Below, in pieces: positions 713 through 55,719 of a DNA stretch of 64,000 nt. The translations under genes were made by a program, and so were the position numbers. The notes beneath the pieces were generated by a model. It had not been told where the DNA came from. It was given only the letters and a program-made list of their open reading frames with translations, and made no database searches. Each line of letters opens with the position of its first letter. Position 1 is the first letter of the stretch. This stretch comes from Larus michahellis (lineage: Eukaryota > Chordata > Aves > Charadriiformes > Laridae), in the NCBI RefSeq assembly GCF_964199755.1, contig NC_133899.1, positions 26,825,446 to 26,889,445 of the forward strand, given 5' to 3'.

Positions 713-1385
713 CTTAACTTGAACTTATCCTTAACTTAAACAGAGAGTGCAAAACAGGGAAATTTCTTGCATGGAGAAGCAATTGGGTACAACACAGAAA
801 CAGGAGGAGTGAGGAGCTGTTACAGCAAAGAACTTCATTAGGCCACCGTATATATCCATGATTATGTTCTAATTTGGGAAAAGAAAAAAAAAAAAAGAAA
901 AAAGCAAAGTCTAGCAAAACTGCCATGTGCCAGGACAACAGTCCAGAGACAAATTTAGCATCTAGGACAAACTGGAGTAACCTAATTTCAGGCTTACATG
1001 GAGTTATATAACTGCTCCAGTTCAACTTGGTCACTCAAAATACTTTCTCCCAAACAAAATACTTTCTCCCAGTGAGCCTAGTTAATTCTGATGGAATGAA
1101 AGGACAGAATTGTAATTATCACATTTTAGCCTGAATGTGTACAATTCGTAGAATCTTAAATTACCTGATCAGCTCTTCTATAGCCTAGTAAGCTCCAGTG
1201 TGTACCAGCTACTCAGTAAATAGGTCATGCAGGAGTAAAAAACCAGGCATCTCTCTTATATTATTGTACTCAATTAATGACCTTGCTTACAACTACTGAT
1301 TCAGTTTAAAAAGCAATAGGTTTTTTAATATAGAAAATAGAAAGAAAAAAGTAAACTTAAGATATTAAAATTTTCATTACTAATA

Positions 1386-28700: not shown

Positions 28701-31700
28701 TTGTGAAGATGGGTTTTTTCTGTATTGATCTCTTGCTAGAATTATCTGGTACTTTGTAAGGCTGGGAATGTCCCGCCTTGCTAAAACTCCTATTTTAATC
28801 AGGCGTCCAGCAAATGTTTCTAGCACCTGCAACAAAACACAGAAGTATACAAGAGATGTGAAGGTTTGTATATTTAGCCCTTTAAAGTAGTTTTATTTTT
28901 ATAAAACTTACACAACAGAACACAAGAAGCTCGCTTATTTTATTTGAAACATGGAATTTTTCAGAACAGACTGTACTGATTCTAGGAATCAATAATTTGT
29001 TACTGTGCCAGACGACAACCTGGTGCTCTGCTTCAGTGTAAGGTTCTCCACTATCAGGATGTTTCTAGGCTATTTTTCAAAATATTTTCTAAGATGAGCA
29101 GAATTTTTACAAGTTGGTTCCCTGAGGATTTGTGCCCTTCATCCTTCTGCCCCCAGGATAAGCCCATATCCATCAAACTGAGGGGTGGAAACACACACTG
29201 TGCTTTTGTAATGGCACAAGTACTGACTGAGCAGACAGGATGTGAAATGGGAGAGGTAACCAGCTACTGAACTCACACCACAGCTCCCTCTCTTACTGGT
29301 AACCCTGACTTCAACAGTGTTTCAGCCTCAGGAAAACTTGCATTCATCTCTGAGAAGTGTAAATTACGGCAGGCGGAGGCCAGCCAACAGGTGAGAAGGT
29401 TGTGTGCAGAAGGAATATAGTCGGGAGACACGAGCAGAGAGGAACGAGCGCCCAGCAGATGGGCCCGGCACAGCAGCGTGCCCTATTTCCTTCGGAAGCC
29501 ACGCCAAAAGACAACTTGTTTTTATACATCACATGTACCTGATTTCCACATCGGTGAAACAAGGGAACTGACCTGCACTAATTCATCTTAATCTTGTTTT
29601 TCCTCTTTGTTTCTTAGCCTCAGGTGGTCAGGATTTTTTTCATAGACTTAGTTTTGCATGAGCGCTAACTCTGTAATAATTGGAATAATCAGATTTGTTC
29701 TACAAAAATTACTTACAATCTGTTGGCCCGCTTGGCTAATAGCGCCAAAAACATCTCTAGTGAGCAATAACAAGCTGCTCCAAAGGTAGTCTCTACTTAG
29801 TTTGACATCAGCTAGTTCCTGATGGCTGCTTACACGCATACAGTGTTTCCCGAGTCTTCTGGGCATTTTCCCACCAGTTGAACTGGGCTGCGCTAGAGAA
29901 GGCTAGAACATAACAGATGCCTAAGCCCTTTGCTGCTCTTCTTTCAGCCCACTGAAAAGCAAGTCCAACAGAACCAATAAAAACAGCTCTAACTTTCAGG
30001 CCTCAAACAATACTGATCTGTCTTCAGCTTGTGAAGACAAAATCAAGAAAAGAAAGTCAACTGTAAGAGTGCAACGCATGTTTATACACTAAGTAACAGC
30101 ACCCCATTTGTCTTCTTCACACATTTAGTGTATGCTGGGTTTTTAGAGCCTGTTAGGATGGATAAATATTACTAACAGCCACACTCTCCTCATACCCTGT
30201 CAATGCAGTGGCAGCCTAGTTTAACTCCTCTCTGCTGCTTTGATTATTTTTATAGTTTGGTACTTCTTTAGCTTCTTACTCTGTGTACAGTGCCGACATG
30301 GCACCAAGTGGCAAATCCTGAGAAAAGGGGTGGGAATAATTGCCATCATCAACTACAGCGGCATTAATCCCCCAAAGAATCAAACATGCAAAGAGAACTT
30401 TGGAAGGGTGAATGAGCACTTGTGAAAGCACCAGTCAAACTGAAGAAACAATGTGCTGGGGAATTTCCACACCACCTGCTCCGTGCCTGCAGGTCTTTCA
30501 AAAACAGCGAGCTGGAGTCAGCAGGCTAAGCAGATTATAACAGATAAAGGCTGCTGAGAAATAATAGAAACAAAGGCTAAATTCTGAATGCTCTGGTGCA
30601 TCTTGGGCTGCTCCTCTTCCCTACTCCGGGCTTCAGGCTGGGACAGCAGGTCTCAGGTGGCTTGTTGCTTTTGCTCAGCAGAGCCCAGCTCGGACTGCTG
30701 GCTCCCAGCCAGAGGCAATCGGGCAATGCCTGCAGGAGCACTGGGAGGCTCTGGGCACGGCTCCAAAGGCAGGACGGTGCTGTGGAGCACTGCCCGCTCT
30801 CCTCCACAGCTCCCAGGAGATTTGCTGTCAGACCCAACACCAACCTGTGCCCAATAGCCCCAGGCACCACCGAGCCCTGTCTTCAGCTTTGACCATATCT
30901 ACAGGGAGCCTGGGCCATGGAAAAGCACAGCACCGTCCAGAGATGCCATCCTGGAGCATGCCTGCTAATTAAGACTAATGCACTAATTAGATCAAATAAA
31001 CCACTAACAACAAGCAAACACCAATTCACCAATTGGAAAATACAATCTTGCTAGGAATCTCCAGAGGAAAGGCGGGGGAGGGGGGGAGTAAATCAAGTTA
31101 TCTTTTTCTTAAAATACAGTCAAAAAACATTCACCAAGCCACTTGGAAGTCTAAATGCACAAGAAATTAATTTCTCATATTTGGTTTAGTTTTAAGAATT
31201 TAAAATTCAAAACTTTGTCATTTACCAAACAGTTTGTTGTTGTTACGTTGTTTTTAAAACTGGCCTGCATCTGACAAGCCACGCTACGAGGACAGAGACA
31301 GGAATGTCTGTGCCAGCTTATAAAATAAAGGTATTAAAAAAAAAAAGAAAAGAAAATGTTGACCATGCAAGGGTAACTCAGTGCTTTTTATTTTAATGGG
31401 ATATCACTGAAATAGCATTTTACCCTCCCATCAAACAGTCGGACATGAGGACACCTGAAATGCTGAAGATCAAGCTTAAGGTATGTCTCTAGTAGTGGAA
31501 ACGGAGTCAGTCTCTGAACACAAATATGATTCTCCAGAATTGAAATTAATGTTTTAATTAAAAAGTAATGCCCACAAATGTATAATATTTCAGCACTGGT
31601 TTATTATTTCCTATACTTGTTGCATGGCTTTTTTAGAAAAGGAATTACCATTAAATATACTTTTATGTTTCATCCCTTGACCTAGTTTATAATATGTAAG

Positions 31701-34700
31701 AAAATTATATTGTCACTGTTTGCTCTATGTACACCTCTGTCTGATTTAATCATCCTCTGCAAAACAACCCAAGGAAGACTATTATGAAAGACAGCGGGAT
31801 CCAGTCACCTGGAGCTTCAAAACTAATAAGGAACAGTAAACATAACCTACTTAGAAGAGATACAGAAACAAGCACTACTCAGAGCTATTACATTTACCTT
31901 GCCTCCATACCTTTATTTTTAATTAAAAAGATAATACTTCTGGAAAGTCTCCTCAATCTTTCCAAAACATTTAAGTATTATGTTACCCATTTGAAAACAG
32001 AACTGTAGAATTAATTTAAATTAATTGCTTACTAGGACTTGTGGCTTTTTCTAGCTCATTAAATTGAGTTCAAAAAGCCAACAGATTGATTACCAATATA
32101 TAAAAGACAACTGGTAAAGTTATTCCATACTGCACTAAACTCGCGAAGAATATAAGGTTTTGCTGAACAAAGTATCTTCCCCAGCAAAATCACGCTGCTT
32201 TTTGAAGCTTGTACCTGAGGTTAGTGTAGGACCTGCCGTTTGGAGCTACGACATTTAGCTGAGGACTACCATGTGTAGTACGGGCAGAACTGGCAAGGCA
32301 AAGAACTGTTACTCTTTCAGCTACACCTCACTAAAACCTGCTGTTAATCTGTTTTCTCTTGGCACAATAAAAAACAAAGGCTCTAAACAAACGACCTAGC
32401 CTAATTATTTTACTGCAGATTTGCAAGCATTCTTTACCAAAGAAAACCAAGAAATCTCCCAAGCATAAATAACAGTTTGTATTGCATTTCTGTCAGAGCA
32501 GAGAAGGAGGGGGTTGAGAGAAACCAGCCACTAAGTAGACCATACGTTCACAAAACAAAGACGTCAAGTCCACTTCTAGCCCCAGGAAAGGTGAACTGCA
32601 GAAGCTCTCCACAGCGCTCCCAGCCTCCATGGACGCACCTGACCAGCTTTATATACTCACACTGCACTTCAATGGAGCTGCCCCTTCCCTTCATCTCCTT
32701 CCCCTGCCCTCCCAACTCTCCCAGCTCCAGCATCTTCAATGCACAATAAGCCACAGACCCCTTCCAGATGTGCTGGGGCAGACACAGAATCGGTGTGCAA
32801 TAAAATGAGACTACGTTGTGTGCTGGTGAGGTAACATCACACCTACAGCTGTGCGGGAACGTTAATGTGCCCCACTGGTCTGCCTTAACCAGGGACCACT
32901 AAAACCAGGAGTAGGGCAGCAACACAGGCAGCTCCAGAACACAAATACAGGTTTCAGATGCAGCTGTGCATCACACAGACATCATGCTGCTCCTGTCCAG
33001 ATGTTCAAATTTTCAACAAAGGGAGCGAAGGAAAGGGGAAAGAAGAGACTTCTTCCAGGCTTTAGCCCCACCACCCATAGCTGGAAACGCAGCTCAAAAG
33101 GTGTATTTATCACAAGTCTTCATGATAGAATTACGATCATACTGTCCTGGGGGAGAACAAACCAGTTTTGCAGTAAGCCATGAAATCAACCAAGGCCTAG
33201 TTCTAGAGCATTCAATGCCTTGTTGTAGGACTGAAACTAGAAGGGTTTGGGTTTGTGCTGCCTTGAGAGGCGTCAGTATGGTAACCTAATATTCCTGAAA
33301 GCAACTTCCAGGAGGAAGCCACAGGAGCAAAACATGTTTAGTCTCTGCCAACCATAACCCCAGGGTGAGTGAGAGAGTCTCGAGACTACCAAAGAAGAAA
33401 GTACCCGTGGTTGCAGAGCCCAGTGGTGACCAGAGAACAGCCAGCCCCACCGCTGTAGCAGCACATCCCACGGATCACCTTGGGCAGCTTACACATACCC
33501 TTTCACCAACTGCAAAGAAACTTTTTGGGCACACAGAGTACATAAAGTTCACGTATAGAGTGAGAACAGTTTATTGTAACGTTTGATGAAGCCTCTCAAA
33601 TCACAGTATACTACATCAAAGAAGGGAGGGAGGACAATTATTAACATAAAAAAAAAAGTGGATTTATGACAGAGAAGGCAACCAAGAAAGGCATTTGGAG
33701 CTACGACTAGTGCTCAGTTTTAGTTATTCTCCCTGTAAAGCTCTGGAGTCACGACAAAGAAACAAACTCTAAACATGAGGGAGAAAAGTGCTATTTTGTG
33801 TAAGCTTTCTACTGACATTTTCTTACCTTCCCAATGATGAAAATAAAGGAACAGGGACACAGCAGGGTACAGTGTTTTTAAGCTGACCTTATAATTCTCC
33901 AAAACCAATACCAATCAACCTAGTAATGATCTTGGCGCCTCAAAGTTTTGTTGTCAAGTTTATATTAACTCATTCAGACACTTCCCAGTCTTCCCACTCT
34001 CCAGAGATCTGTTACCCATTGAACATACACCAGTCTTCCCTGGAAGCTGGTATTCACCAGAAAGATACAATAGTTTGTCCTCTTCCAACATCTTGATTTT
34101 CTCCTATTATAACATTTTTTATTTCTTAAAAGTTACAAAAAAAGATGGCCTACAGTTTTTACTTTTCAATTAATTTCACTGAGAACATTTTTACTCTTAC
34201 TCAGGAAGTCGTAAGAAAGAAGTGCCTTTTCTTTATCAATCTGCCATTCAGTAAATGTCAGCACTTTGCCACGAGACAGAAAGAAGCATCCTATGGAGGA
34301 TGTTTCATATCCTCAATTTGCAAGGCTGAATATTTTTCTTTTATATTTAGAGATATAACCTGCCAGGAAAGCATCAAGAATGCAGCACTACCAAAACTAC
34401 TTTCTTTCAAGAGTGACTATTTATTAGCCAGCAGTTGCACACAAAATTAACAAGTTGTAGGGTGGAAAAAAAACCCACAAATACAGCAAAAATCAGCTTT
34501 GTTCAACTCCAGTAACAATCAGCTACTCTACTAGTCTGAGCTGATAGCAGCATCTAGACACAGACCACAATACACCTTCAGTACTCCATCAAATGTAGCC
34601 CTTTGTACGTAATTACTAAGGGCATCATAAACCAAAACCAAACCAAATACACATGCAGTAATCTGTGCAGGTGAATATTTAAAACAGGATCTTAAACTCC

Positions 34701-37700
34701 TAGCAGTCTCTTCTCACAGGTAGCCAGTCAATACTCTTGGCATTTCTCACAAATAGAGAAATTTGGCTCTAAACAGAAATAATTTCATTTAAGCATTTAT
34801 TCTCATAATTAAGGCTTGAACAAAAGAGTTGGGATCATTTTTTGTGAGACAGCATCAGAATTATTTGTTCAGGATAGGCAGAGGAAGAGCCTCTACCCAT
34901 TGCCTCAAAAAGTCAGCTCTTCTCAAGAATAATGGTTTCCTGGAAGAAATCTCCAAGATCCAGGATGCCCTCACTGGGTAGCAATAATCCAACTTCCAAA
35001 ATTACATGGAAAATTCCTTACAAAACTGCAGTCAGTGTTCGCACTGCACTAAAACATAACTTAAGACACTACCTGTGTCATGGATTGATTCACATTGTGC
35101 CTAACTTCAAGGTACCTACCCCACAGCAATGTAGCTGCTCCACGAATAACGTTCAACAGTACCTTTGTGAGGAAAATCTGATAACTGCCAAAAAAATACA
35201 GTCCACTTCAGCACATTTTCAATGAATCTTGTGATTCTGTACACTAGGTAGTTGGCCATGAAATCAAATCATCAGACAACCAAACATTTAAGCAAGCATC
35301 ATTTCCAGCATTCATCAAGAAATTGCCTTCTCAGTGAATTTCAGATCAGAGTCTGTGATGCTGCCCATAACTAAGAGGCCAAACATCCTCCCAATGGAAC
35401 TATCTGCCTCACTGCAACCAGTGAATTCCGCTTTTCCGTAAAAAACTAACCAACCAACCAAACAACCCACATGCTAAATTCATTAGGAAAGAACTGTTCT
35501 CTCAGGACATCCCCACTGGCAGTTGTTCGTCCATTTGCAAATTCTCCAAGAAACAACAGTCCTTGGCTGGTCAGCTTTGGCTGACAGAAGGAACACTTTG
35601 TAGGAACAGCAGGATTTCAGGCTGTGGTATCAGAATTACACGGTCAGGACCTGCACATCTTTGGCTTCTAAGGCAATTACTGCTTCATCGTCACACCAAG
35701 ATCAGCCCCTGGGACTAGGTAACTAAAGTTGATCCTGGCAGAAAGATACTGAGCAGAAAAAAAAAAAAGGGGGGATTAAACATCGCATCACAGAGTCAAC
35801 AGTTACATTCCTAACCTTTGGTTTCCTCCTGCAAGCATCTCAACAGTGTAGGGGAGAGGACTATTTTCCTATTATTCTAAAATTCTAAAGGCCCAGAGGT
35901 TCCTCTTTCCTGCCTTAAAAAAAAAAAAAAGGACCACAACACTTATTTCACATTAAAGTTGGAAGGAAAGACAACCACAAATAGAACCACGTGCTCCACA
36001 CAGATCCCTGATTCAAATTCAGATCCTGCTTGCTGGCCTGGTAACAGGTCTGCTCCTCCACCTCTTTCTCATAAAGGCTTGCCCCAGCAATGGCAAAATT
36101 GGGCAGCTGTCAACTTCCAAAGGTGGACTTTCAATAATAAAATGAGCCATGGTTTTTACACTCCTAACTGCATCCAGTTTGGAATGACCTCGCAGGCACT
36201 TCTGAATAAAATGAAAGATCTGTCTTTCAAGCATGGTTTGAAAACATTAAAAGAAAATCATAATAAAGAAGGATTAACAGGGCATGAAGAGCAGTGGGGA
36301 AAAAAGATGATGAAGAGAATGGCTAGGAAAACAGCACGAGTTAAAGTGAAAAAACATAGGAAACACGAACTTTTTTAAGATCTACACTGCTTGGATGCTA
36401 CAGCGCCGGCTGAAGCCGCAGAGCATGAGGACCGCTAGCAAAGCGGCGCTGGCTGCGTGCGGGGCCCCCTGCCGGAGCTCTGCCCTGCTCCGCCAGCCGG
36501 GAGCGCAGTGCGGGCAGCCGCACATCCCTCCCTCCCTGCCGGCAGGGTACTGCCCCGGCGGCAGGCGGGCAGAGGGGGGGCCCCCTCCGCCCTCAAATCC
36601 CTGGGCAGGGCGAGCCCTTCATAAAGCGGCGCGGCGGCGGCAGCGCGCCCAGCCCGCTCCCCGGCTCTGCTCGGCGCGATGGAGACGGGCGGGTGCCGCA
36701 TGGGCGGCGCGGAGCCGGGCGGCCCGGCCATGATCACGCTGGAGGACCTGGACGGGATGGCGCAGGAGAGTCCCGATTCGGCGTACCACAGCAACGGGAG
36801 CAGCCTGGAGGAGGAGGCCGAGCGGATGGAGGACGAGGAGCAGGAGCGGCTGCTGAGCTACTGGCAGAGCGTGGGCAGGGGGCACCAGGTGGACGTGCCC
36901 CGGGGTAAGAGCCGGCCGGGCCGCGCTAAGCCGCTTACACCCACAGCGGCCCGCTGGGCTTTGGGGGATTAGGGAGCGGCATTTCGGGGTTTACCGGCCG
37001 GTACCGTAACCTTCCCGGGTACTTCTGACCTTCAGCTGCAGGATGTCCCCCTCGGCAGCCCCCCGCGCTTCAGCGATGCCGGTGACGGGTTCTCCGGCAG
37101 GGAACAGGACCCCAGCAAACCTCCCCCTTCTCCACAGAGAACCTGTCCTCGGGGTTGGCACCCAGCTGTCCCAGAGGGAGGTGTGGGGCAGGGCCAGGGG
37201 GGGATGGGGCACGGCCCCATCTGCCCCCCCTTCACCCCCAGCCAGGCTGGGGAAGGGGCTGAGGTGAGGGGGGAGGTGGTACAGCATAGGGTGTTGCCAT
37301 CATCACCCATTGCATTTCTGCACACTTCTGATACATACAGTCCGAGCTAAAGCCCTGCACTGGGAGATTCAAAAGATTTTTCTAACAGAAAAGTGGATGT
37401 AGTAGTAGTGGGTTGACCTGTTCATACTAAAAAGGACTGATTTGAGTTTTCAGTCTTAATTAAAAAATTAAGTTTGGCCACCTGCAAAAGCATTAATCTT
37501 AAGAATCTCTCCTCACTGTAGCTATCCAAGAGGTCAGTTCTTTAAAGAAAGATGCTTGAATTGAAAGATAGCACAGTGTAAACAAGCAAAAGGATTGACT
37601 TTGCTTTTTGACAGTAAGCCTCCCAGGCTTATCTTACTAAGAAACTGTTTATTTTCAAATTTAAGAAAGACTGAAGAATCTGAAAAATTGTAACAAGTCA

Positions 37701-40700
37701 GATAACTCCTAACAAGCAGCAGAGATAACTGCAAACTTAGCTCTTTCAGAAACTCTAACTGATCTGCACTGTCCTGTGTAGAGAAGTACAGAGAGCTCCT
37801 TGGCATCTCTACTGTTCAGATAAATCACCTTCTAAGAGGAGGGGAAGCAGCAAAACCTTGAACAACAGTCTGCACTAGACACTACCAAAATGAAATGACT
37901 GTTACTGGAAAACTTTTTCTAGATTCCAACACAGCAAGAGGGGCACAACCTCCTTTTCAAGTCATGCCTAGAAGTCTCCTCTTATCTTTCTAATGTTTTA
38001 ACAATGCAAATCAACGCCCTGTCAGCTACTAACAGAAGGGCAAGCTCAGTCTGAACAGAGCTCCCTGGCTTGCCTCGTTCTCGCTGCCCGCAGGAGGGGT
38101 CCTTGTGCCATCTCGTCCCTCCGGCAGCCGCAGGTTTTCATCTGTAATCAGTGCATCGTGTCTGACAGCTTTGGGGTCTACAGGGGCACAGAGAGAGGGG
38201 AGTGGAGCTCCCTATTTAAGGCATTAAGCATGAACACACAGACATTAAGTTGCTCCTTAAGAGTACCTTTGTGTATCAGAAAACAAGATTCCTTCCCACA
38301 AAATTATCTGGTATTCTATGGGTTATTATATTATAATATATAATATATAATATTATAATATTATATGGGTATTTCAATGCCCTGTTTCACTGAGATTTAT
38401 GAGGCAGGATATCAAGTCTAGGAAATAAGTCAAAGGTAGTATTTTACCACATTTTAGCTACTGTATTATAAAAGGTTTACTCTGTAATGCTACACAAGTG
38501 TTACAAAAATCTAAATGGAAGATTTTTCTTCAGATATTGTCCAGGGCTATAGGTCAAGAGTGACTGCATCTCAACTAGAACAGCCTAGGAGAGTTTGCCA
38601 GATTAGTTTACATGGTCCATTCAAAGTTCAAGCTAACTGTCAGCATCCATGCTAGTATCCAGCCAGCTAAAGAGTACTCGAGCCTCAGGGAACACAGAGA
38701 GGAAAAGTTGCTGACTTTCTGGGAGGAGAAATCCTCCCAGTCAGCAGGGAGCAAACCGCCTCTCTTGACTGCTGTGTCCCATCCAAGCAGCTGGTGTCAC
38801 TGCCTAAGCCATGATTTAAGAAAATACAAGAACTTTACCTGGCCGGCTATTGACTGCCAGCCTGGTAACTGTGCAGAGCACTTGAGACCTTAATAACAGA
38901 GTGTATATTTCCTGTAGTCTAGTGGTAAAATCTGCAAAATAAGAACATTATCAAGCCTTTCATCAATAGTTCCAGACTGCCACAAGCTCTGACACCTGTT
39001 TTGTTCTATGGTGACAACATACCTTTCAAAAAGATGACTTGCTTTGTAGCTTTTGTTTAGCACCTTTTAAGGGTTACAGGAACACAGTAAGCATTCTAGA
39101 AAAATCTAAGATTTTGTGAGATGTGAACAACAGATATTTACATGGCTGGCATTTCAATTTATCACTTAATCCTATAGACTGGCCGGCCTATGCCAAAGCT
39201 TGCAACAAAAAGGTAAAAGAAAATGAAAGGTGCAGGAAGGTATAAGCTAATTTTCTTGGCTTGAAAACTCCATTGTATCTACTCCCAGTAGAAGCAGAAA
39301 ACACGCTACAGCATGTTTACCTTAGATTTCTCAATTCTAATTTCAATACAAGCACAGTCATTAACAAGCAAGCTCAGGAAAACCCATCAAAACCATCTAC
39401 TTGCTAAAGCATAAAGCTGTCGAAAGATACTCAGTGTACAAAGCAGCATGCGCTGAGCTCAGGTACCCAGGCTCCACATCAAACTTCAGACCTGGAATCG
39501 CGGGTGGTTTTCCATCTGTTCCAATGTATGTCCCCTGCTGAGGTGACCTCACATAAGTGGCCCAGGGGCCACTGGACAGCCATAACCTCTGTGGCTGACG
39601 GAAGCGTGCAGGGAAGGACTGCAGAGCCCCCATCACTGGGTCGTGCCCAGACTGCAGCCTCACAACACAGCCCACCCCAGCCCAGTACTGACCCTGCTTA
39701 CACCTCCTAGAGCTGTTCCCCAGTTGCTCTCTCTAAGGTGCACCTCTAGTGCTTCTTTTCAGCATGAAGGTTTTGGTTCCCAGCATTACAAAGGCTGTCT
39801 CCTCTGCCCTAGAATGACAAAGTTGTATGCGCATGTACATTACTTAAGGGCACAGCTGACAAGTACATCCCACTTCAGAGACACTCCCAACAGGTCTGAT
39901 CAGACACAAATTAAGACATACAACAATTTAAATACTGTTCAATCTTGCTGCTATGCACAAGGCTTGTCAAAGGTGCCTCATCTACATAAACCCCTTTGTA
40001 AAGATTTGCCTCTTGCATAATACCTACCTATAGTAGCAACTGCAATCACAGTTTTGAAATTTAGTTAACCAAGCCTTTACACTGCTACAACTTGTCTTGC
40101 CTTTTGTCACACCAGTATTCAAGTTTGCAAGCTTGGACTGACAGATGACATGCAAATCATGCAACTCACTTGGCTTTTAGGCAGCATAATATTATATATA
40201 GTATAGTATTGTGCAGTTAAAATACTTATAATCCAAATGTTATACTGTCATGCCTGACAGGCACGGATTCATGAACTGAAGAATAAAACTCCCAAAAGGA
40301 CTTTAATTAGTTGTAATTTCTATCCTGTGCATTAATATGGAATAAATTAAAAAAAAAAAGAAAAAATATAAATCTCCCACATTTATCAATAAAGGAATCT
40401 AATAATAGAGTTAACTTTTCTAGAGTCCCCAAGTGTTTCCTAATTCTTGAATACTCTGTGGAAAATTCAGTGCTGAAGTCTAATCTACTTATAATTTTCT
40501 CAGCCTCCAAAGAGATCAATTTTACATGTCAGTTATTACTTACATTTTAAATGTTTCCCAATGACATTTAAAAAAAAATGTTTAACATTAACCAAGTATA
40601 GCCTTCTCCCCTTTATTAAAAGGATCTTTACTATTCCAAATAGTCTTAAAACTAAAACCCCTGCACTGGATGTCAGGAGATGTAGGTTTGATTCCCAGCT

Positions 40701-43700
40701 CAGCTACAGATTTACTAAGTGACCTAGGCCAAGTTAATTCTCCTGCATCTTAATTCTCCTCTTCTCTGAAACATGGATAAGACTCTCTTCCCCCATCGTC
40801 CTGCCTTTTCCACTAAAGATACTGAGGCACTTAAAACACCCAAGAGAAGGGCTCTTACTTCAGTTGAAGCTCTAGTCCTTTTCATGTATGCCTGATACAT
40901 ACCACGAGGTAGTATGGCAGAAATTCACATCCAGACTTTAAAACACTGTATATGAAAATTAAGTTTCTCAACCTCTATCAAAATACACAAGTGCTTATAT
41001 TACTTCAGCTTGAAAGGCAAGGGACTAACTCTTTTGGAAGAGATGCCTTCCATTCCTAAGACTAACCTTATATTCAGAGTTTCCAAGCCTGTCTGATAGG
41101 GATCAACTTCTAAGCAGAATTTATTTATGAACTGCAGCTGGAATTGACGTCAAGGCAACGATAGTTGCAAATACACCTAATCCATCCATATTTAAATGAC
41201 AAAACTGAAGCAGAACAGAAATACTAGAATATACTAGTACTATATATGCAAGTATAATATATTTGCTCCTTCTATCCATTTGAGCTTGGCTGGGAAGTGT
41301 TAACGATTAATACAGACTGGACGATTGCTAGGGTCACTACATCTAGAAACGGAGAATAAGTTTTCTATTTAATTTCTTACAAAATGTGAGAATCACTCAA
41401 ATGCACATTTCAGTTCCATCTCAGTTTTGGTAAGCGAACGTGTAGGTGCTTAGAGTTCTTCAACAATAGTCAAGCATTAACACTCTCCTTCACATAATGA
41501 TCCGCCACGAAAATGCAAGAGCTCAGATCAGAAGTGATGACACATGTTAGACTGTGCTCCGAGCCCTCCTTCTTCCAAAGGGCAAGACAACAGCAAACAT
41601 AAGAAGCATGCAAAACTCACGGTGTCCCTATTAGTCACATAAAGTTGGTATGTTACACTTAAGATTTACTAGTGCTTTTTGGTAACTATGAATATTTGAG
41701 AACATTGAACCACTCTATTTCTTTCAGCCAGATGTAATGGAACCATAACACTGAAACGTTTCAATTTTGCTAAATGTTAATATTCACTCTCAGTCAACAG
41801 TTTTCTGTCCCTTCCAAACTGAAATAAACCCTTTAATCTAATATACTTGGTATCTAATCGGACAGCACATATGTATAAAACCACTATGCAACAAAAAGCA
41901 ATTGTGTTCAATAAGCACAAATCTATGTTCTAATTTCTTTGTTAAAAAATCATGTCTTCTTGAGATACAGTTCTTCAGTGAAGTATACGCTGAGGAATTT
42001 TAAATTTCCTCATCTTACATTTCTTTAGCTTAACAGGACACTCTTCTCCTCCCTCACCTATACTATCTTCAATCCCCCCTCCACACCCCACCTTCGCTTT
42101 CTCCCCTCCAGCCTGCGCACATCGGGCTCTCCAGCCCCTCCTGTGCTTCACCCTGCCCTAACCAGGCAGGCAGCCCTCCAACAAATTATCTTGAGTTCCT
42201 CAATGCCACTGCTGTACCATGAAACCCCAAACCAGGCACAGCAGGGGAAATGTGGCTTCACGAGCACTGGACAGAACAGCCAGTCACACCCTTGAGCAGC
42301 TGGCTGCAGTCTTGCTGACACAGCCCCGTGTATGCCCTGTTCTGTGATGTCTCCTTCTGAAGCTACAAACAAAAGTTCATGTTCTCTTCCACTTCTTAAT
42401 GAAGATATTTGTTTGCCTTTGGTTTTGAAATCCTGCCCTCCTGTAAGGTCTTACTACAAGGGCATGCATTAAAAAAAAGTAAATATTATGCAATTCACTT
42501 AAGACCCAGAACTCCACTTTGCATAGAGGAGCTGGATCACCACAGCATCACAGCTGAAACACTCTCCTTCAGTTTCAGCTCTAACGCTCCCAGAGACTGC
42601 AACTAGGAGTGAATCACAGAGAAAAGCAGTGTGATAGCGGGGCAGCATGGCTAGCACAGCACCAGCAGCTCGGGCACTGCAGCCTCCGAGTGCCAACACG
42701 GGCCTTACACCCAACATATGTCCTGACTACTGAGTAGCACTGAAATGTGTGTAATATCAAGTGCTAAAGTAGAATATTAGACATAAAACACCATTTGGAA
42801 GTGATGAAAGTTTCCACAGTGATATTTCCTTGAACAAGAGCAGCTAACTCAATTTACTTCTTCATGTGGATACACATTAATCCAACACCAAAAGAGTTAG
42901 AAGAGTTTCTAGAATCGGCAGTGTCATCTGCACAGAGACAAAAGTCCATTAACCTTTCCTATTAATATTGAAGCGCAAACTAAACTTGTTAAAAACACAA
43001 AGTCGCCTGAAGTTTAACTAAGAGGAAGTAGAATGAGACACATATTCTTCTTATTTCTACAGCTTCACCTCTAAAACTGGAAATGTATCATTTTGTTGCA
43101 GACATGGCAGAGCCAATTCAGCAGCTGACTCGGAACAACAGCCCCCAGGAGAGACAGACCATCCCCTTCACTCTCATCCACCGCAAAGAAAAGGTACCGT
43201 TTCCCTTCCCAGCTGAGCTTGGAACAACATTTTCAGTACTCATATCTAGCTCACAAAAATATGTTTCTTCATAAAATTATTTTAACAATTTAGGATTTTT
43301 AACATCATAAGTGCAAAGCATTATAACTGGATAACTACAGTTAATTTTTAGCATCTCAACATTTTTACATGCGTGAATTTTTCTTTTTTGTAAGGTAGAA
43401 ACTATCAGGAAAGTCAGAAGATGGTCAGGAATTACAGCCTTTGTGACTTTTTAGAATTAATTTAACAAAAACCCCTTAAATTTTGACATTTGAAATAAAA
43501 TGCCTATTTTCTTCATTTAAATCAATGCATTTGCTTCTTTACACAATCACATTAATAAAACCTTAGCAAAGAATACTTGAAAGAGATTAATATTTGAAAT
43601 TAAAATGTAACATGTATTTTCATATCGTGGGTCATTATCAAACAAAGCAGCAATTTGCAAACCCATCTTATCAAACCCATCTTATCCTCTAATGAAAAAC

Positions 43701-46700
43701 TGAAATTGACATCCAGCAAATTGCTAACAGCTCAGGAAAAGTGCAAACAAGTGTCTAACCTTAAATACAGGACAAATCTTTATGAACCATGTATGAAGAA
43801 CTCTTATCACATTTTTTTTAAATAGATCTATATAATTCAAATTTATAAATATCACAATTTGAATGAGTGTATTTCATCCAAATAGTTTGGGACTCCTGAC
43901 TATTTATGTTCTGATTAAATGCTTGAAAGCAATTTCTCATTGCTACTGTAATGACTGCAGATAAACAAATGAGGTTATTCAGTGTTAATTGCAACTAAAT
44001 GTTTAATACTGCAAGTCCAAGAGATGACACTTCCTTATTTCAAAGGAGAACTACCTAGAAGTCTGCTGAAACAAATTTTGGTCCAAGATCAGCAGCATAT
44101 CCCTTCTTGATTTATGCTAGGAAGGATTAAAATTCACAGCTTCCTTTCAAGATCATTTCACTGACAGTTGAAAAAAAGATGCAATTATTCCTGTACTCGA
44201 GTTAGATGCATACACTGCATTGGGTTTGGATAGCTACTTATTATATGCTGGCTTGGACCTTGAAATGAAGCACACACGAACCAAGTATTAAACAGAATGA
44301 GCCTAAGGTACAGCTGACATTGAGACTTAAAATCATTCCTAATGCTTCCTGCTCTCCTGCTCATACACCTAAAGAAGTTGATTTTCTTATTCTACAAGTA
44401 ATATTGTAGCATATATATTTGTTGTATACAAATACAATGTATCTGTATACATTTTTTGTATTTGTACACATTTCCAATTTGTATACAAATACAATGCATT
44501 GTATTTGTATACAACAAATTGTTTGACTTTTATTTGTTTGCTTGGGTTTTTTAGGTGATTAACTTAAAATACAAAATTATTCTCTTACTGTGTTTGCAGC
44601 TTGGAGATCTGCTTTATGAAAAACGTCAGTATGGAAAAGCCAAATGGGCTTGTATAAAAATGAAAGAAAAACAGTATGAACAGAGCATATGCCTTGGATT
44701 CATGAAGCTTATGAGGTACATTTGTGAGCAGAATTCCTCAGGTAATTGGTGCCACAATTCTAGATTTAAGTTAAAACATTATATTTATGCACTAGCTCAT
44801 CCTAATTGGGGAGAAAGTTTTATTAGCTTTTCCCAAATCCTCCACCCGGTCTACAGGGACATTTTCCTGCAATGCAGCCTTTCCAGCAGAGTCTGAGCCA
44901 ACGTGTTGCTCCCTCTGCACACATGCTAGAGGAGAACATCTGCGGGAAGCAATCACAGCTTCCAAGGGCACTGTGACCATTACAACTGTCTGGGAACTGA
45001 TACTGGCTGATTTTGTAGGCTGTCAGCTATAAATTAGGCTTTTGCTACACAATTTTAGTGGTTTACTTTCCATGGCAGTACTGAAATCGCCTGTTCTAAG
45101 AACTTATTCAGAGTGTAATGCCAAGAGAGACCATAATGTTTCGTCTCTGGTTTGAGTTCATGATACTCAACTTGTGCATGTCTGAACGGACACCAAAAAT
45201 TTCTGTGTCTGAAGCATATTTTCCAGAAAGATAATCCAGTTTTAACTCAAGTACTTTAAAATAATGGCAAGTCCACCATGTCCTTGATAGCTTGTGCCTG
45301 CACGAGAAATGTGCATCTAGTTTCCAATCCAGTTTTATCTGGTTTCAACTGCCAGCCATCCATTGTCTTTTTTTTTTTTTTAATTCTCCAGTTGATTAAA
45401 AAGTATTGCAATGCCTGGTGTTTTGTTCTGTAATAGTACATGTGTTGTAATCGAGTCAACCCTTACTTTTATTTCCAAGAAACTGAAAACATTGTTCATG
45501 AAAGCTTTTCTTTAATCAGGTATTTTCCCCACTCTCCCCATTCTTTTAACACTTTAGCATAGTTTAAAAGTAATTTTTGGCTCCAGAACAGCGCTGTTTT
45601 GTTTTCAAACTGTGTACAGAGGCCAAATGCCCACTCCTAGACATCACTGCTACCTGCACAGTCGAAAGAGTCAACCTTCTCCTAGAACATTGCAAAAATG
45701 TAGCAACATGTTTGATAACAGCAAATCCTAAACTAATTCACAATGCAGCCCCCTTATCTTGCCTACATTCTTTGTTCCCAAATATTTAAAACATGACACA
45801 AGGTCAGTTTACAACATAAACATGGGGAAAGAAGTTAAATCAAACTCCTTGCCCTCCATGAAGAGAGCTCACCAAATACCACATTTTAGACACACATGCA
45901 CAATATTTGCACATGTAGGTTTTAGTTATGTACACACACACAAAGTACAAGGCATAATAAAATGCTATTTCCACTTGGAATATAGAACTGCATTTTCTAA
46001 AATATCCTACTGAATTCCTTTTAGTAATGACATTCTTGTTGCTCCACGGTACTCGGTTTGTATTATTCAGCTTGGGTTCAGAAGTCGAGCATGCTATGTA
46101 GACCTCCGTTTACATTTTCTAAAAAGTCATGTATGTCTCCTCAGGACTGTACTTGGGGATAACAATACCCATTGTGACCATAGTCCATACAAATGAATCT
46201 CAATCGGAGATGACACAGGCAGTGACAGTAGCGTACTACCTGCCTGAAGTGCTGCAGGACGAGCCACCTCATCCTTTTGACTCTGACATAATCATTGAAG
46301 AATGGCCTTCTACTATTGTTTATAGTAGGTAAGAAATATTTCAATTCTGTTCTAGTAAAATCTGTAAAAAGATGTAGTTTTCAATTTGGGCTTGTTACAT
46401 CTTTTAAATCAGGGTCTAAAGGCTAACAAACAGGAAAACTTGATTTTTTAGTAGTTGTTAAAAGTTGCCTGCTTTACGAGACTGGGATATTCAGGAAATA
46501 ATGGTTACCAGCTTACTTGGGAAAACAGTGCAGCTGTAAATGTGAGATACAAACTCAAAACACAGACTATTCTGTGTAGCTAGGAACAAAGTATCTGACA
46601 TGTCACTGAAAATGTTCAGAAAAAACTGTTATGTGTATGAGATCAGTCAGGGAGTCATTTGCGAAACACGACTAAATAATTTAGGAGGAGGCATTTCTAG

Positions 46701-49700
46701 TCTCTGGAAAAAACTGTGGATTTTAAAAAGAACTTGATATGAAGTTGATTGTTACAGGAGCTTCAGAGGAATCACCAATGAAGACTCTATAATGAGAGAA
46801 ATAAACCTGTTGGCGGAAATTCTGGAGAGTCCCGAGTTATGTTTGCAGGATACATTCATCATTGCAGGATATACAAATCCAGCTGCTGCCAACCGACACA
46901 ATGAGATATGGTTCCTTCAGAGACCATAGCCTCCCCTTTCCGATGCTTGTCACTCACAAGAATCAGTGCTGATTTACAGGTGAATCACGTAAGGCTACAC
47001 ATCAAACCCTCAAAGATTTTAGAAATGTGGCTTTTGGCCAGTTTAGCAAGGCAATCACTCCAATTTAATAATCCAACAGAGGTAACACCTGGAACATACA
47101 ATTTCCTATGTCAACTTCTACAGTTTTTACACAATTTTTATGGAGATTTTTAGCACTTTAAAAGTTAGTTCACCTTATCTTTACAAGGTAAGGCAGACAG
47201 AGACTTCTCTCCTTGTCCAGTTATTAGCAGCTCTAGACTGCTTGTGGCCTGGGACAGTCCTAGGGGAGATCCTGGAGCCCCTGCCCTGGGCACCCAGTGC
47301 TGCACCAGCTACACAAAGACCCTCTTGGGGCCTTCAGTGGGACACGTTAGAACCACCTCACACATGCAGGCTATGCTGCAGAAAAAGAATGTTCAGGTCT
47401 TAATCTCTGAAGAGAACTACCAGATATAGACCACTGGGATTAAACCAAGGAGTAAAACTAGACCAATGCTGACTGCTTTTAATGTCATCATCTGTGGAGC
47501 AGAGATTCTTAATGCTTACCTCAAAAAGCATTCAACCAAAGTACTTCTAACCTTGAGAAGAGACCAAAAAAGCAGAACAGTCCTAATGCTCATTGAAGTT
47601 TTGATAGCAAAAGTTACAGGTTATCTTAATCACACACTCATAGTAATCCCACGGCTATATTTGGCATTTCTAAATACAAAGTGGTAATTCTTAACACTTC
47701 AGCTTCACAAACACTTTCATCTTATAACTTTGCTAAATGTTAAAACGTTACAGCTGAAGTAATTCGTTCAGTACTTTTTACACTCGTCTGGCAGTACCAC
47801 ATTATTAATGTTATAATTGATACAAATATTTCACAGAAAAAAATTTCAGCTCAAAGTGACCTCTGGCAGTCGCACGGTGCAGCTCTGCTGCGCTGCTGGC
47901 AGAGCGGGCTGCTCAGGGCCTCACACTGCTGGATTTTGAGCACCTCCAGGGGTTGGGAGCCTGTAACCCTCTAGGCCCCATTCCAGTATCTGACCACCCT
48001 CACTGTGAGAAATTTTTCTTCCTAATACCTAATTTTCCCTGTTGCAGCTTGTTTCTTTTATCCATATGATAATTCTTGAAGTAGACAACTGCTAATCTAG
48101 CACGCTGTGATCAAAAGACAAGCCCACGTCATTCTCCATGCATCAGGAGGCCTGAAAGCAGCACTCACACTTTGCTGTGTTCTACAGCTACAGAGCACCT
48201 ACTGCACTTTAGAATCGGGGTAGCAAACAGTTTTGCTCTCAAAAATCCCTTCCTAAAGTCTCCCCTCACAGACATGACAGTAGAGTTTAACCTTAACAGA
48301 ATTAAATGTCTTTTTATATAAAAAATTCATTAATTATATCACCAGCGTTATTTATCGATTATATGATTTAGGCTCTAAATAACGCTTTTGTGTTACTGAG
48401 TTACAACATACAAGACAGCACCCAAACCAGTGTCTGTTAGCTTACAGTAGCGTTAATTGGCAAACACAATGGATTTATGGAGTACTTCTGACTGAATAAA
48501 CACACAGGTCTCAAGAACTTTAAAGCCTCCGGGTTCCACAAGGCTCTCTGCTGCACAAAATTGACTTTATGCTTAACCTCAAATCTCTTGCAGAGCAGCA
48601 GGATCAGGGCAGGCTGGCTGGCCCTGCTTAAGCATGCCTAAGGCGCTCTCTCGTGGTGGCTGCCCTCAGAGACGCCTTGGGGAGGCAGCAAGAAGGGGAA
48701 AAGGAAAATAAAAAATAAAAATAAAAATAAAAGAGAGAGAGAGAAGGTTTAATTTAAACGCAAACAAACTGACACAGACCGGCAGGTCCGTCACAGACCT
48801 TTGTATTGCCACAAATTAATGGGATGTTAAACTGATGGGGGGCAATCTCAAAAAAGACTGTGGGATTGGGGGCTTTCTTATTCCAACCAGAAAGCTACCA
48901 AATCCGGTTTGCCAGGTGACAGCAGAAATGCTTGTGCCAGTTGTGGCCACAACTAGGAACTACTTTGTCTGATGTGCCAATTCAGATGCACATCGAAGTA
49001 TTTCTTACTGAACAGAACGAGACAATGAAGGTATCTGTCAAGTCTTTTATTCCTCTCCATTTGTTCAAGATACAGGATCATAGCCAGGGAAAAAAATTCA
49101 GACTTCCTTTTCAATATGTTGAATTGTTTCTTATTTGATTTTTATTTATGTTGCTTCTTATTTATTTTTAACATTTCCTCAGATTGTTGGAAATACGAGC
49201 CAGTATTAAAGTGAAAGCTAACAATTTAATGGAAAACATTAGTTTTTAAAAACTGAATTGAGTAGAGGGCCCAGGGAGGCATTAAATAACGGGTTCTGTT
49301 TTGCCCTCATCCCCCACAAGATTTTTATAAGAGCAAATAAAAACAATTTTCACCTTTGACATGATTTTATGGTAAAATAAAGAAGTTTCTGCAATTTGAT
49401 TGCTTTTGCCAGTCATAGAAATTATTTTAGGCTTTAGCAAATGTCAAATAGCTATTGGAAGCAGTTAAATCCTCTCACCATAAAGTACCAGTTTGTACAT
49501 ACTTTGCATTTTAAACGTCTATCGCAAAAAGCATTTGCTATATCTTATGTCTCTTTCCATAGGCAATCTTCACCTAAATACTTCTGTGACTCAGCTACTT
49601 GTGGGTATGTTATAGAAACATTCCTGTTACTGAAATATAAAAATAAGGTATTTATCTGAATGTGCTGATATCCTAACCGCAGCAAAGTGTTCAGCGTTGT

Positions 49701-52700
49701 TTTATGTAAAACTGTGAATTCCAAGATAGTATTTATTTTGACTTATGTTAGACAGCTTCTGCTGCTGAGAAAGAACCAATTAATCTCGAGTTTGAAGATA
49801 CACTTTATGGCTATGGAATATTGTACCAACTTCTGTAACCAGCCCTCACAAGCACGGGCACAAAGAATTGTGTTTTTTCATTGACACACAATAAAATTTA
49901 CTTCATAGTTACACCACTGAATGCCAAGGAAACGTTACTATTACTCAGATACATCACTTGAGAAAGCTTGAAAACATTATGTCAAGCTTCATTATCTAAC
50001 TCCTGTTACCAGAATAGGTACGTTGTTATCCATCTGTGGCTCTACCCTGTAAGCCATTAATTAATGGATTTTCATTTTTAATTTGAAGTTATTTGATTTC
50101 CACTATTCAAAGGAGATAAAAAAACAGAATTCACCCATATTTTTGGAAGATTAAATGACGTAGCCTTAACAGATAAATGTTGTCCTGCATACTGTGTATT
50201 TTTCAAACAAGCATTAGTGCCTAAAAAGTTTATTCCAGCTATTGTGATACTCAGGGCCTTGCTTATTGTATGTATACAAATATAAAAATAATTTTTCTGG
50301 CATTGTTGCATTGTGCTGTTTTACACTGTCCTTCATTTTCACTGAAATGTCGTCTTGTTTACTGTTACTGTTTATCAAAATTAAAGGTAATGATTTTATT
50401 GTGCAGAGTACACCTGGCTTTGTTTTTTGCTATCTTTCCTTTGAATGGGAACAGCAGAAGTCACAAGTTGCTATTCTGATTCTACAAAAGCCATAAGCCC
50501 AACAAAAATTAAATAACTTTCAGAAGACACACATTCTTTGAAATAAACAGGTACATTTGGAGCTATGTTACTACGGGCTGCAGCCAGCAGGGCTGCTAGC
50601 AAACTCACTCCTCCTGACTGCAGAAGCCATCTGCAACCCCTTTTCTGTCAAGTGCCCAGCACAGTCCCCCACAACCCTCAAAGCAGCACAGACTGGGGTA
50701 GGGCTGGTTTCAGAACCAAGCTGGAGAGAAGCAGTTCTTAACAAAGAGTGACATATGTATTGGAGCTTTCTCCTAAATCCCAATGCCATTCAAACGTAAT
50801 CCACGACTGATTCTTTTGGCAGGGGACAAGGATAATGCAACATCTACGCGTTGCTCCTGTGGCTACACTCACATCTCTATCCTGATCTCAAGCCACTCAG
50901 AAGCCAAAACACAGGAGCACAGCAAACAGTGCAACTTAACTTCAGGGCATGACCGACGTCCATCGCTGTGCTGCAGAAAACTGCACAACCACAGAAATAC
51001 CTCGGCGGAAACTGAGGCACAGGAGCCACTTCTGAAAGTGCTGGGGTCTCTAATACTAAGGCTTGGCTTGCCCCTGAACACTGGAAAAAGCGGGGGCACT
51101 ATCCTTCCACACTCTCTGTGTTGTTACAAGTCATATTTTCTATGTAAAGCAGTAGCAAAACAAGTGCAAATACCAGATCAAAGAGAGGAAATAGAAACCA
51201 CTGAAGCCACAGTAACGATTTAGTCCAGGTTTGTCTATACTCCTCAATTACACCAGATTAGCCAAACCTGTGTGCTTATTTCAGCTTAAATCTCAAGTGA
51301 AACACCTCAAATTAAATCCCTGCACTCCATACGAGCTTTCAGAGGCACCTGTAGTGATGCAAAACTATCTTTAAAGTTCTTGCTAGCTTATCAGTGGAAC
51401 TTCCTCATTTAAATATACTCTCAGGTTACTGGATTGAAAACAGGTGAACTAACTTAATCTAGAAAATGAATGAACAAGTTTGCCAGTGGTCTTCACATAA
51501 ACACAAAAATCATTAACTTTAATCAAAAACATACTCTAAGGACAACAGTCTGATACTAACGTAATCCTATTTTTTTTTATCTCTCTTACCAAAAAAAGAA
51601 CATACATTTTGAACGTTTCAAAGCAGTACTTTATATAATACCATTTGTCTACCAGTACCTTACTGAGAAGACGCAGACCATTAAGTTGTCACTGACTTGC
51701 TAACAGTGCTGGTCCCTGCTAATCTGCCCTAAATTGAGACATTACCTACTGGTAAAAAAGAAAAGAAAAAACCCAAACCCAAAAAACCAACCAAACAAAA
51801 AAAAAAACCAAGGAGAACTAAGTACACTTACAGATGACTTAAAGCTCTAAAGAATATTCTTAATCAGAGGAAATGCTTCAGTCACTATACAGTTTTCATA
51901 AGGCTGGCAATAACCCAGACAACACCAGCATGGTCATTCTCAACATCTTAATACTACTAAATTCAGCCAAATTAAGAAGCCCTCAGTTTAGGTCTCATGG
52001 CAATTTTGCAAGGACTCCTGAAAGAGGATGAGAAAACTAATTCAATTTTAAGTTTTCCATCAGAGCTCTTCAAGTTATTGCAAGGTAATAACTAGCATTG
52101 GTGGAAAGTGAAACCGCAGCTGCTAAAGTTGAAACAATGTTTCTTTTTTTGCCTTATACTCAAAAGCAAAGTTAATTGAATAGGAAAGTGTTACTTTATA
52201 AGTTATTGCTAGTCTAGATAAGAGATGTTAACACAGGAAGGGAGATATTTAGTGACACTGTCTGTTTAACAACAAAGAAATGCAACAACTCACCTGGATG
52301 TAAGCACTCTGAATTTCTACCAATTCTTCACCAAGCGGAACAACAATTTTCTCCACTTGTCGCTCATGAGAATAAGGCTGAATTTCCGGAGAATCTTCAG
52401 CACATAGTTCTATCTGAGCAATGAGTAAGTTGGAAATAACTTGCTGCACAGCCTGTTTGAGAAGCCACAAAAGACAACTGTATTTTCTCGTTAACACTCC
52501 GGCAACACAAGTCAATATCACGTGAAAATAACTATTTCCATATTTTAGCAGGCCTTGAATATAATTGTAAGGAAAAGGTACCTACTAACTATATATGAAA
52601 AATGAAAGACTCTCCAGTTAAAGATCTCAAGTAGTATATATAAAGAGTCAACATGGTAAGTTCCTGAATGCAAAAAGCGTGCTACTGCACAAGGGCTGGA

Positions 52701-55325: not shown

Positions 55326-55608
55326 TCTCCCTCAGGGCACCACCGCTCCGCGCGGCTCCCGCCCGCTCTGAGGTAACGCGCGCCGAGGCGCAGCGTCCTC
55401 CATTTTCCCTCAGCGCCGCCGCTTGAAAGCCCCGCGGGAGCCGCCGCAGGGACGGAGGGGTGGGACCGGAGACGGCCGAGCCGTCTCCGGTCCCACCCCT
55501 CCGTCCCTGCGGCGGCTCCCGCGGGGCCGACGGGAAGGCTGGGCGGTGCGTGAGGAGGAGCCGGTGGTGGAGGAGGAGGAGGAGGTGGCGGCGGCGGCGG
55601 GCGGGAAA
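55326..55608. promoter_or_regulatory. Bidirectional FANCM/FKBP3 promoter
   Basis: 283 bp separate the divergent start codons of FANCM (minus) and FKBP3 (plus). The segment is very GC- and CpG-rich, has no TATA box, and sits in a CpG island running from about 54840 to 56080. The layout is typical of a housekeeping head-to-head pair. It contains a long perfect inverted repeat. Confidence 0.85.
55429..55527. repeat. Perfect 48-bp inverted repeat with 3-nt loop
   Basis: Arms 55429-55476 and 55480-55527 are exact reverse complements around the loop CGA. Arms are GC-rich (they begin GCCCCGCGGGAGCCGCC). The first mismatch is immediately outside each arm. It lies in the shared FANCM/FKBP3 promoter, in the 5' UTR or core promoter of FKBP3. 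Confidence 0.97.
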
Positions 55609-55719
55609 ATGGCGGCGGCGGCGGGTCCGGCGCAGCCCTGGAGCGCTGAGGAGCTGCGGAGCGAGGCGCTGCCCAAGAAGGATATTATCAAGTTCCTTCA
55701 GGAGCACGCAGCCCAGGCG
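55609..55719 (+). CDS. FKBP3: FKBP3 exon 1
   Basis: 111 bp coding, residues 1-37, phase 0 at a GTAAGG donor. A poly-Ala start, then [20 protein letters not shown] as in other FKBP25 proteins. The frame is open upstream of the ATG but has no earlier ATG. Confidence 0.96.

What the first reader, a model, noticed from the sequence alone, without database searches (positions are those of the whole stretch)
28827..52293. SOUL-family heme-binding-like gene nested antisense inside FANCM intron 4
FANCM exons 4 and 5 are consecutive in the protein but 23.5 kb apart. A complete five-exon, 271-aa gene with its own CpG island lies between them on the opposite strand. I do not recall such a gene at the human FANCM locus, so it may be retained in birds, and perhaps other non-mammals, and lost in mammals. 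Convergent transcription through a DNA-repair gene could cause regulatory interference, especially if, like chick SOUL, it is active in retina and pineal.
Basis: partly seen in the sequence, partly recalled or inferred. Interest (0 to 1): 0.75.

Follow-up and report, generated by a model that had tools for sequence, protein, structure and literature searches.

The report
SOUL-family gene nested inside FANCM intron
An intact gene of the SOUL (heme-binding-like) family sits on the opposite strand inside one intron of the DNA-repair gene FANCM in what looks like a bird genome; it is a real but ordinary nested gene, and it appears to be a different SOUL gene from the one known from chick eye and pineal.

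Summary
FANCM exons 4 and 5 (minus strand) are consecutive in a solved FANCM chain and are separated here by an intron at 28827-52293 (23,467 bp). A five-exon, GT-AG, 271-codon gene with its own CpG island lies in it on the plus strand. Residues 94-267 match Pfam SOUL (E 1.4e-42).

The reading needs changing. The same genome shows SOUL exons at four loci: HEBP1, a HEBP2/SOUL gene, this gene, and a close sister with identical intron phases. This gene is not the HEBP2/SOUL orthologue (31% identical to solved HEBP2, against 53% for the HEBP2-like locus), so chick SOUL's retina and pineal expression cannot be carried over. It shares with its sister an N-terminal extension that matches no Pfam family above cut-off. 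The heme ligand reported for mouse SOUL aligns with Gln here, so heme binding is open.

Loss in mammals is plausible but untested: no vertebrate genome collection was available. Divergence suggests the gene is older than the bird-mammal split. Interference with FANCM is unsupported speculation. New member of a known kind.

The parts
28827..52293 (-). FANCM intron 4 (host intron, 23,467 bp)
   Evidence: Exon 4 ends at 52294 with donor GTGAGT, exon 5 starts at 28826 after TTGCAG; the joined peptide is gapless against FANCM chain 9el5_A
52294..52452 (-).
   Evidence: CAG acceptor before 52452 seen
28695..28826 (-). FANCM exon 5; 3' end by the GTAAA donor read by eye
36301..37200 (.). CpG island over exon 1 of the nested gene (GC 0.68, CpG o/e 0.76)
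36679..36904 (+). Nested gene coding exon 1 (acidic N-terminal extension; alternative starts at 36700 and 36730)
   Evidence: the whole-genome search with 58 residues of it found only this place, but missed the sister's exon 1, which local tblastn found at 34%
43102..43193 (+). Nested gene coding exon 2 ([31 protein letters not shown])
   Evidence: counterpart DMAGPIVQMTR.. in the sister
44600..44741 (+). Nested gene coding exon 3, SOUL domain
46145..46328 (+). Nested gene coding exon 4, SOUL domain
46758..46929 (+). Nested gene coding exon 5 with stop codon, SOUL domain
54751..56100 (.). CpG island at the 5' end of FANCM (minus strand), shared with a plus-strand frame that reads like FKBP3 (name recalled)

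Best explanation
A functional protein-coding gene of the SOUL family, of a branch distinct from HEBP1 and HEBP2, nested antisense inside FANCM intron 4. Shown: intact five-exon structure, SOUL domain, own CpG island, position in the host intron, no coding-exon overlap with FANCM, and an intact sister gene elsewhere in the genome with the same exon phases and the same kind of N-terminal extension. Inferred: it is transcribed from its own CpG-island promoter into a spliced mRNA, while FANCM RNA polymerase passes over it in antisense and the whole gene is removed as intron, so the two normally coexist without much effect on each other. Inferred: the protein is a soluble SOUL-fold protein that binds tetrapyrroles or another hydrophobic ligand and acts in heme/porphyrin handling or oxidative stress, with the N-terminal extension as a docking or regulatory part. 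Inferred: the lineage is older than the bird-mammal split.
For: Gene structure and ORF; Pfam SOUL 146.1 bits; PDB hits 9 of 9 at E up to 1 are HEBP2 or HEBP1; host is FANCM with consecutive exons; 10 SOUL exon matches at 4 loci in the genome (the tool scores only its best candidates, so this is a lower bound); sister gene with phases 1,0,1,2 and equal exon 3 and 4 lengths, 142 and 184 nt; pN 0.357 against pS 0.706 between the sisters (dS 2.1, near saturation), i.e. coding constraint over their history; N-terminal extension 35 of 66 aligned residues identical, SOUL domain 78 of 178; this gene is 29-31% to solved HEBP1/HEBP2, about the HEBP1-HEBP2 distance (30.6%), while the genome's own HEBP1 and HEBP2-like genes are 70.4% and 52.6% to the solved ones. 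Lead only: zebrafish soul5 is light-induced, its promoter has predicted D-boxes and drives light-inducible transcription (PMC12561580, passages), and it rises with alas1 and fech in manganese toxicity (PMC9227717, passages).
Against: No transcript, protein or cross-species orthologue was available. The heme ligand reported for mouse SOUL, His42 (PMC6321638, passage; I place it at the His of YEIRHYG by inference), aligns with Gln here; HEBP1 (Ala) and the genome's HEBP2-like gene (Gln) lack it too, and HEBP1 does bind heme (PMC7700505, passage). No exact D-box was found in 1.5 kb upstream plus exon 1; with one mismatch one site, read on both strands, against 3 rows expected. The constraint test is between paralogues and cannot exclude recent decay of this copy; the N-terminal part has low synonymous change too (pS 0.41), so its higher identity is not proof of stronger selection.
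Confidence: 0.82

Rival explanations
1. It is simply the bird HEBP2/SOUL orthologue moved into FANCM, so chick SOUL biology (retina, pineal) applies.
For: Best PDB hit is HEBP2 (E 8.2e-24, 87 bits).
Against: Another locus, C12, is the HEBP2 counterpart (160 bits and 52.6% to HEBP2), this gene 31.4%; it has N-terminal exons shared with its sister and not seen in the parts of HEBP1 and HEBP2 compared here (the first exon of the C12 gene was not found).
Confidence: 0.04
2. A recently silenced or decaying copy: intact frame but no longer expressed or needed.
For: No expression evidence; single genome; constraint is measured only against a paralogue.
Against: No stop in 271 codons and all 8 splice sites canonical; CpG island kept.
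Confidence: 0.08
3. Antisense transcription of the nested gene is used to regulate, or interferes with, FANCM.
For: Opposite strands within one transcribed unit; a CpG island inside the intron. [quoted passage not shown]
Against: No coding-exon overlap: nearest FANCM exons are 7.9 kb and 5.4 kb away. Opposite-strand nesting is the common form, and expression divergence of mammalian nested pairs is not different from unnested genes (PMC8467205, abstract and passages).
Confidence: 0.06
4. A lineage-specific insertion of a SOUL gene into FANCM in this group, rather than an old nested gene later lost in mammals.
For: The nested arrangement was seen in one genome only; the majority of vertebrate gene overlaps are reported as not conserved among lineages (PMC2151771, abstract and passages).
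Against: Identity to the sister (46.3%) is below that of the genome's HEBP1 (70.4%) or HEBP2-like gene (52.6%) to the solved ones, so the gene itself, though not its place, looks older than the bird-mammal split. Rate differences could mislead.
Confidence: 0.2

Closest known systems
HEBP2 / SOUL (PDB 5gqq, 3r8j, 4ayz)
   Same: SOUL domain, 31.4% identical over 159 columns; intron positions within the SOUL domain look the same, by eye, in the genome's C12 gene
   Different: Extra N-terminal exons; the reported heme ligand His is Gln; the HEBP2 BH3 motif LASILREDGKVFDEK (PMC9171138, passage) is [14 protein letters not shown] here; a separate locus is the HEBP2 counterpart
HEBP1 / p22HBP (PDB 7oon, 2gov)
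   Same: SOUL domain, 29.2% over 161 columns
   Different: Different N-terminus; the genome has its own HEBP1 at C1 (70.4% to 7oon)
Sister gene at G000:C3:14658111-14661940 (minus strand)
   Same: Five exons, phases 1,0,1,2, exon 3 and 4 lengths equal, N-terminal extension EDLDG..PRDMAxPI; 46.3% over 244 columns
   Different: 245 aa; lies near a kinesin light chain gene, with an Ig-domain gene read as PTK7 (recalled) on the other side
Zebrafish soul5
   Same: A SOUL-family gene beyond hebp2, so fish too have extra members (PMC12561580, passages)
   Different: No sequence was available; orthology is an untested lead
Nested LRRTM genes in alpha-catenin introns
   Same: Protein-coding gene on the opposite strand in a large intron of an unrelated host; such structures can be lost: of 91 examined, 19 had lost host, nested gene or both in frog or chicken (PMC3933685, passages)
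   Different: Different families; this internal gene has five exons, whereas internal genes are typically intronless (PMC8467205, passage)

Membership tests
SOUL/HBP family (PF04832) | SOUL domain above the curated cut-off | tested here: met
   146.1 bits, cut-off 27, profile positions 2-172 of 173
SOUL/HBP family (PF04832) | Binds heme or other tetrapyrroles | not testable with these tools
   Needs purified protein; the His reported as ligand in mouse SOUL aligns with Gln
HEBP2 orthologue | Closest relative of HEBP2 in the genome | tested here: not met
   C12 locus 52.6%, this gene 31.4%
HEBP2 orthologue | BH3-like motif with a D-G core | tested here: not met
   D-G is S-P in the alignment
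HEBP1 orthologue | Closest relative of HEBP1 in the genome | tested here: not met
   C1 locus 70.4%, this gene 29.2%
Nested (intronic) antisense gene | Whole gene inside one host intron on the other strand, no exon overlap | tested here: met
   CDS 36679-46929 (+) within 28827-52293 of FANCM (-); UTR ends not known
FANCM as host | FANCM-specific MHF-binding domain and helicase exons | tested here: met
   FANCM-MHF_bd 47.4 bits, DEAD, Helicase_C in 3 of 4 FANCM pieces given; the fourth piece matched no Pfam family but FANCM chains match in PDB
Gene lost in mammals | Orthologue absent from FANCM intron 4 and elsewhere in mammals | not testable with these tools
   No mammalian genome collection; that human has only HEBP1 and HEBP2 is recalled

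The most novel reading that the evidence does not exclude
This gene and its sister are members of an ancient third SOUL lineage, marked by a conserved N-terminal module (EDLDG .. PRDMAxPI), that non-mammals keep and mammals lost entirely; the protein is a light- or oxidant-responsive heme buffer, and its promoter inside FANCM couples heme/oxidative state to the output of a DNA-repair helicase in the animals that keep it.
Probability: 0.05. Interest if true: 0.65.

Novelty: new member of a known kind. Interest (0 to 1): 0.33.

Why it matters
If the lineage loss holds, mammals lack a SOUL branch with its own N-terminal module, and work on HEBP1 and HEBP2 in mice would miss it. The locus would also give a natural comparison for transcription through a DNA-repair gene with and without a nested promoter. 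If it does not hold, this is an ordinary nested paralogue of a small family.

Tried and rejected
D-boxes in 35179-36904 (1.5 kb upstream plus exon 1): TTAYGTAA 0 exact; with one mismatch one site at 35434, read on both strands (2 rows), against 3 expected from the window's density; RTTAYGTAAY 0 with none or one mismatch; one E-box CACGTG at 35988, not read as evidence. Relatives in viral contigs: 3 stretches matched a pattern, 0 relatives. Relatives in bacterial/archaeal contigs with the two-sister alignment: 70 stretches matched a pattern, 0 relatives. NCBIfam: 0 families. N-terminal extension in Pfam: none for this gene; for the sister HTH_66 at E 0.13, below its cut-off, rejected. Genome search with exons 2-3: 7 rows at E up to 10, of which 2 are this gene, 1 the sister, 1 the C12 locus (E 1.48) and 3 at C1, C9 and C10 (E 0.45-4.5) taken as chance. 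The search with exon 1 returned this place only but missed the sister's exon 1 (found), so diverged copies may be missed. Rfam and tRNA scans of the window: 0 and 0. Tandem repeats in the intron: 5 short rows. My first exon boundaries were one to two bases off and gave stops; the corrected model is. The SOUL evolution paper of Fortunato et al. 2016 is not held. Searches for print on this locus: 'SOUL + heme-binding + FANCM' 0 papers, 'nested gene + intron + FANCM' 0, at least two of '2-like/1-like/HEBP2-like/SOUL-like/bird' 0; the library lacks most subscription papers, so this is no proof of absence. Seen without bearing on the verdict: HEBP2 (or SOUL) differentially expressed in longspur hypothalamus (PMC11659517, passage); a SOUL gene with daily rhythm in two cnidarians (PMC4476465, passages); the chick pineal paper PMC2405806 has the word SOUL only in a reference title.
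Full report
What was checked. The finding makes two kinds of claim: that a complete SOUL-like gene lies antisense in FANCM intron 4, and that it may be kept in birds, lost in mammals, active like chick SOUL, and able to interfere with FANCM.

Host. On the minus strand the window reads FANCM exons from 55.3 kb downward (most of them recognised from memory). The exon ending at 52294 is followed by a GTGAGT donor and the exon starting at 28826 is preceded by TTGCAG. Joined, the two peptides match PDB chain 9el5_A, 'Fanconi anemia group M protein', residues 183-277, without a gap (E 2.4e-38). Other pieces match DEAD, Helicase_C, the FANCM-MHF-binding family and further FANCM chains; one of the four FANCM pieces given to Pfam matched nothing. 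The intron is therefore 28827-52293, 23,467 bp, exactly the stated interval.

Nested gene. Five plus-strand exons (36679-36904, 43102-43193, 44600-44741, 46145-46328, 46758-46929) have AG and GT at all 8 intron ends, phases 1,0,1,2, and read 271 codons without a stop. A TAA lies in frame 57 nt upstream of the first ATG. Pfam gives SOUL, PF04832, 146.1 bits, E 1.4e-42, over residues 94-267. Exon 1 sits in a CpG island (36301-37200, GC 0.68, CpG o/e 0.76, against 0.34 for the window). The coding span starts 7.9 kb from FANCM exon 5 and ends 5.4 kb from exon 4, so no coding exons overlap. The domain score together with the splice structure excludes chance. The exact start is open: the sister gene begins near this gene's internal Met at 36730, so the protein may have 254 residues.

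Relatives in the same genome. The window lies in an unnamed 1.405 Gb assembly. Searched with the SOUL family it shows 10 exon matches at 4 loci, a lower bound by the tool's own note. A query with exons 2-3 gave 7 rows: this gene (2), the sister (1), C12 (1, weak) and 3 chance-level rows. A query with exon 1 returned this place only, but it missed the sister's exon 1, which local tblastn then found; diverged copies could therefore be missed. Locus C1 is HEBP1: 70.4% to solved HEBP1. Locus C12 is the HEBP2/SOUL counterpart: 52.6% to solved HEBP2. Locus C3 (14658111-14661940, minus strand) is a sister of the nested gene: 245 aa, five exons, the same phases, exons 3 and 4 of equal length (142 and 184 nt), 46.3% identity over 244 columns. 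It lies near a kinesin light chain gene and an Ig-domain gene that I read as PTK7 from memory.

What follows. The nested gene is 31.4% to HEBP2 and 29.2% to HEBP1, as far from each as they are from one another (30.6%). It is a separate branch and not the SOUL of chick retina and pineal, which the literature equates with HEBP2 (PMC6321638, passage). Both sisters carry an N-terminal extension not seen in the parts of HEBP1 and HEBP2 compared; it is 53% identical (35 of 66), the SOUL domain 44% (78 of 178). It matches no Pfam family above cut-off. I read it as a docking or regulatory module; that is inference. The N-terminal part also has low synonymous change (pS 0.41 against 0.82), probably because it lies in GC-rich exons, so its higher identity is not by itself proof of stronger selection.

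Age and loss. The two sisters are less alike (46.3%) than the genome's HEBP1 and the solved HEBP1 (70.4%) or its HEBP2-like gene and solved HEBP2 (52.6%). Chain 5gqq is human (PMC6321638, legend); that 7oon is mammalian is recalled. If rates were similar, the sisters parted before birds and mammals did. I recall that the human genome has only HEBP1 and HEBP2, and all 9 PDB hits are those two. Together this makes loss of both sisters on the way to human the simplest reading, but no mammalian or other vertebrate genome could be searched, and nothing shows where the gene lay before. The alternative, insertion of an old gene into FANCM in one group, remains open. Loss of nested structures has precedent: of 91 opposite-strand pairs, 19 were reported to have lost host, nested gene or both in frog or chicken (PMC3933685, passages).

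Function. SOUL proteins are tied to tetrapyrrole binding, mitochondria and cell death, and their exact role is unsettled (PMC6321638, PMC6739868, PMC7700505, passages). The heme ligand reported for mouse SOUL, His42, which I place at the His of YEIRHYG by inference, is Gln here; it is also Gln in the genome's own HEBP2-like gene and Ala in HEBP1. HEBP1 binds heme all the same, so binding by another route is possible. The HEBP2 BH3 core is not kept. Zebrafish soul5 is induced by light; its promoter fragment, with predicted D-boxes, drives light-inducible transcription, and the gene set to which it belongs is reported as induced by light or oxidants; the mutation tests in the passages I saw were on hebp2 (PMC12561580, passages). 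soul5 also rises with alas1 and fech in manganese toxicity (PMC9227717, passages) and marks a meningeal cell type (PMC11220022, passages).

Interference. Nested genes mostly lie on the opposite strand, and expression divergence of mammalian nested pairs does not differ from that of unnested genes; but in Drosophila it does, and some properties of mammalian nested genes fit interference (PMC8467205, abstract and passages). The internal gene's five exons are unusual, since internal genes are typically intronless (same passages). I found no evidence for or against an effect on FANCM itself.

Verdict. Real, precisely described, functional-looking, and ordinary in kind: a new member of the SOUL family in a nested antisense arrangement. 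The lineage-loss idea deserves a search of vertebrate genomes; the chick-SOUL analogy should be dropped. That the genome is a bird's was not proved: a FANCM exon is identical to chain 7da2 (recalled as chicken) at 39 of 43 residues and to 4e45 at 22 of 42, and a CR1-like reverse transcriptase fragment is present (name recalled).

Noticed in passing
window 323-724 (-): A 133-codon open frame that reads like a CR1-type LINE reverse transcriptase fragment (name recalled), fitting a bird or other sauropsid.
   Followed up: no
window 54751-56100: CpG island between the FANCM start (minus strand) and a plus-strand frame that reads like FKBP3 (name recalled): a probable shared promoter.
   Followed up: partly
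L012 (G000:C3:14654500-14664000), minus strand: An intact five-exon sister SOUL gene, 245 aa, near a kinesin light chain gene; with the nested gene it shares an N-terminal module that no Pfam family covers above cut-off.
   Followed up: yes
window 36620-36625: A TATA-like CATAAA 59 bp upstream of the first ATG, inside the CpG island.
   Followed up: no
window 36730: In-frame ATG matching the sister gene's start better than the first ATG does; the true N-terminus may be 17 residues shorter.
   Followed up: partly
G000:C12 locus (L010): The genome's HEBP2/SOUL-like gene also lacks the His reported as heme ligand in mouse SOUL (Gln instead), so that ligand may not hold for bird SOUL.
   Followed up: partly
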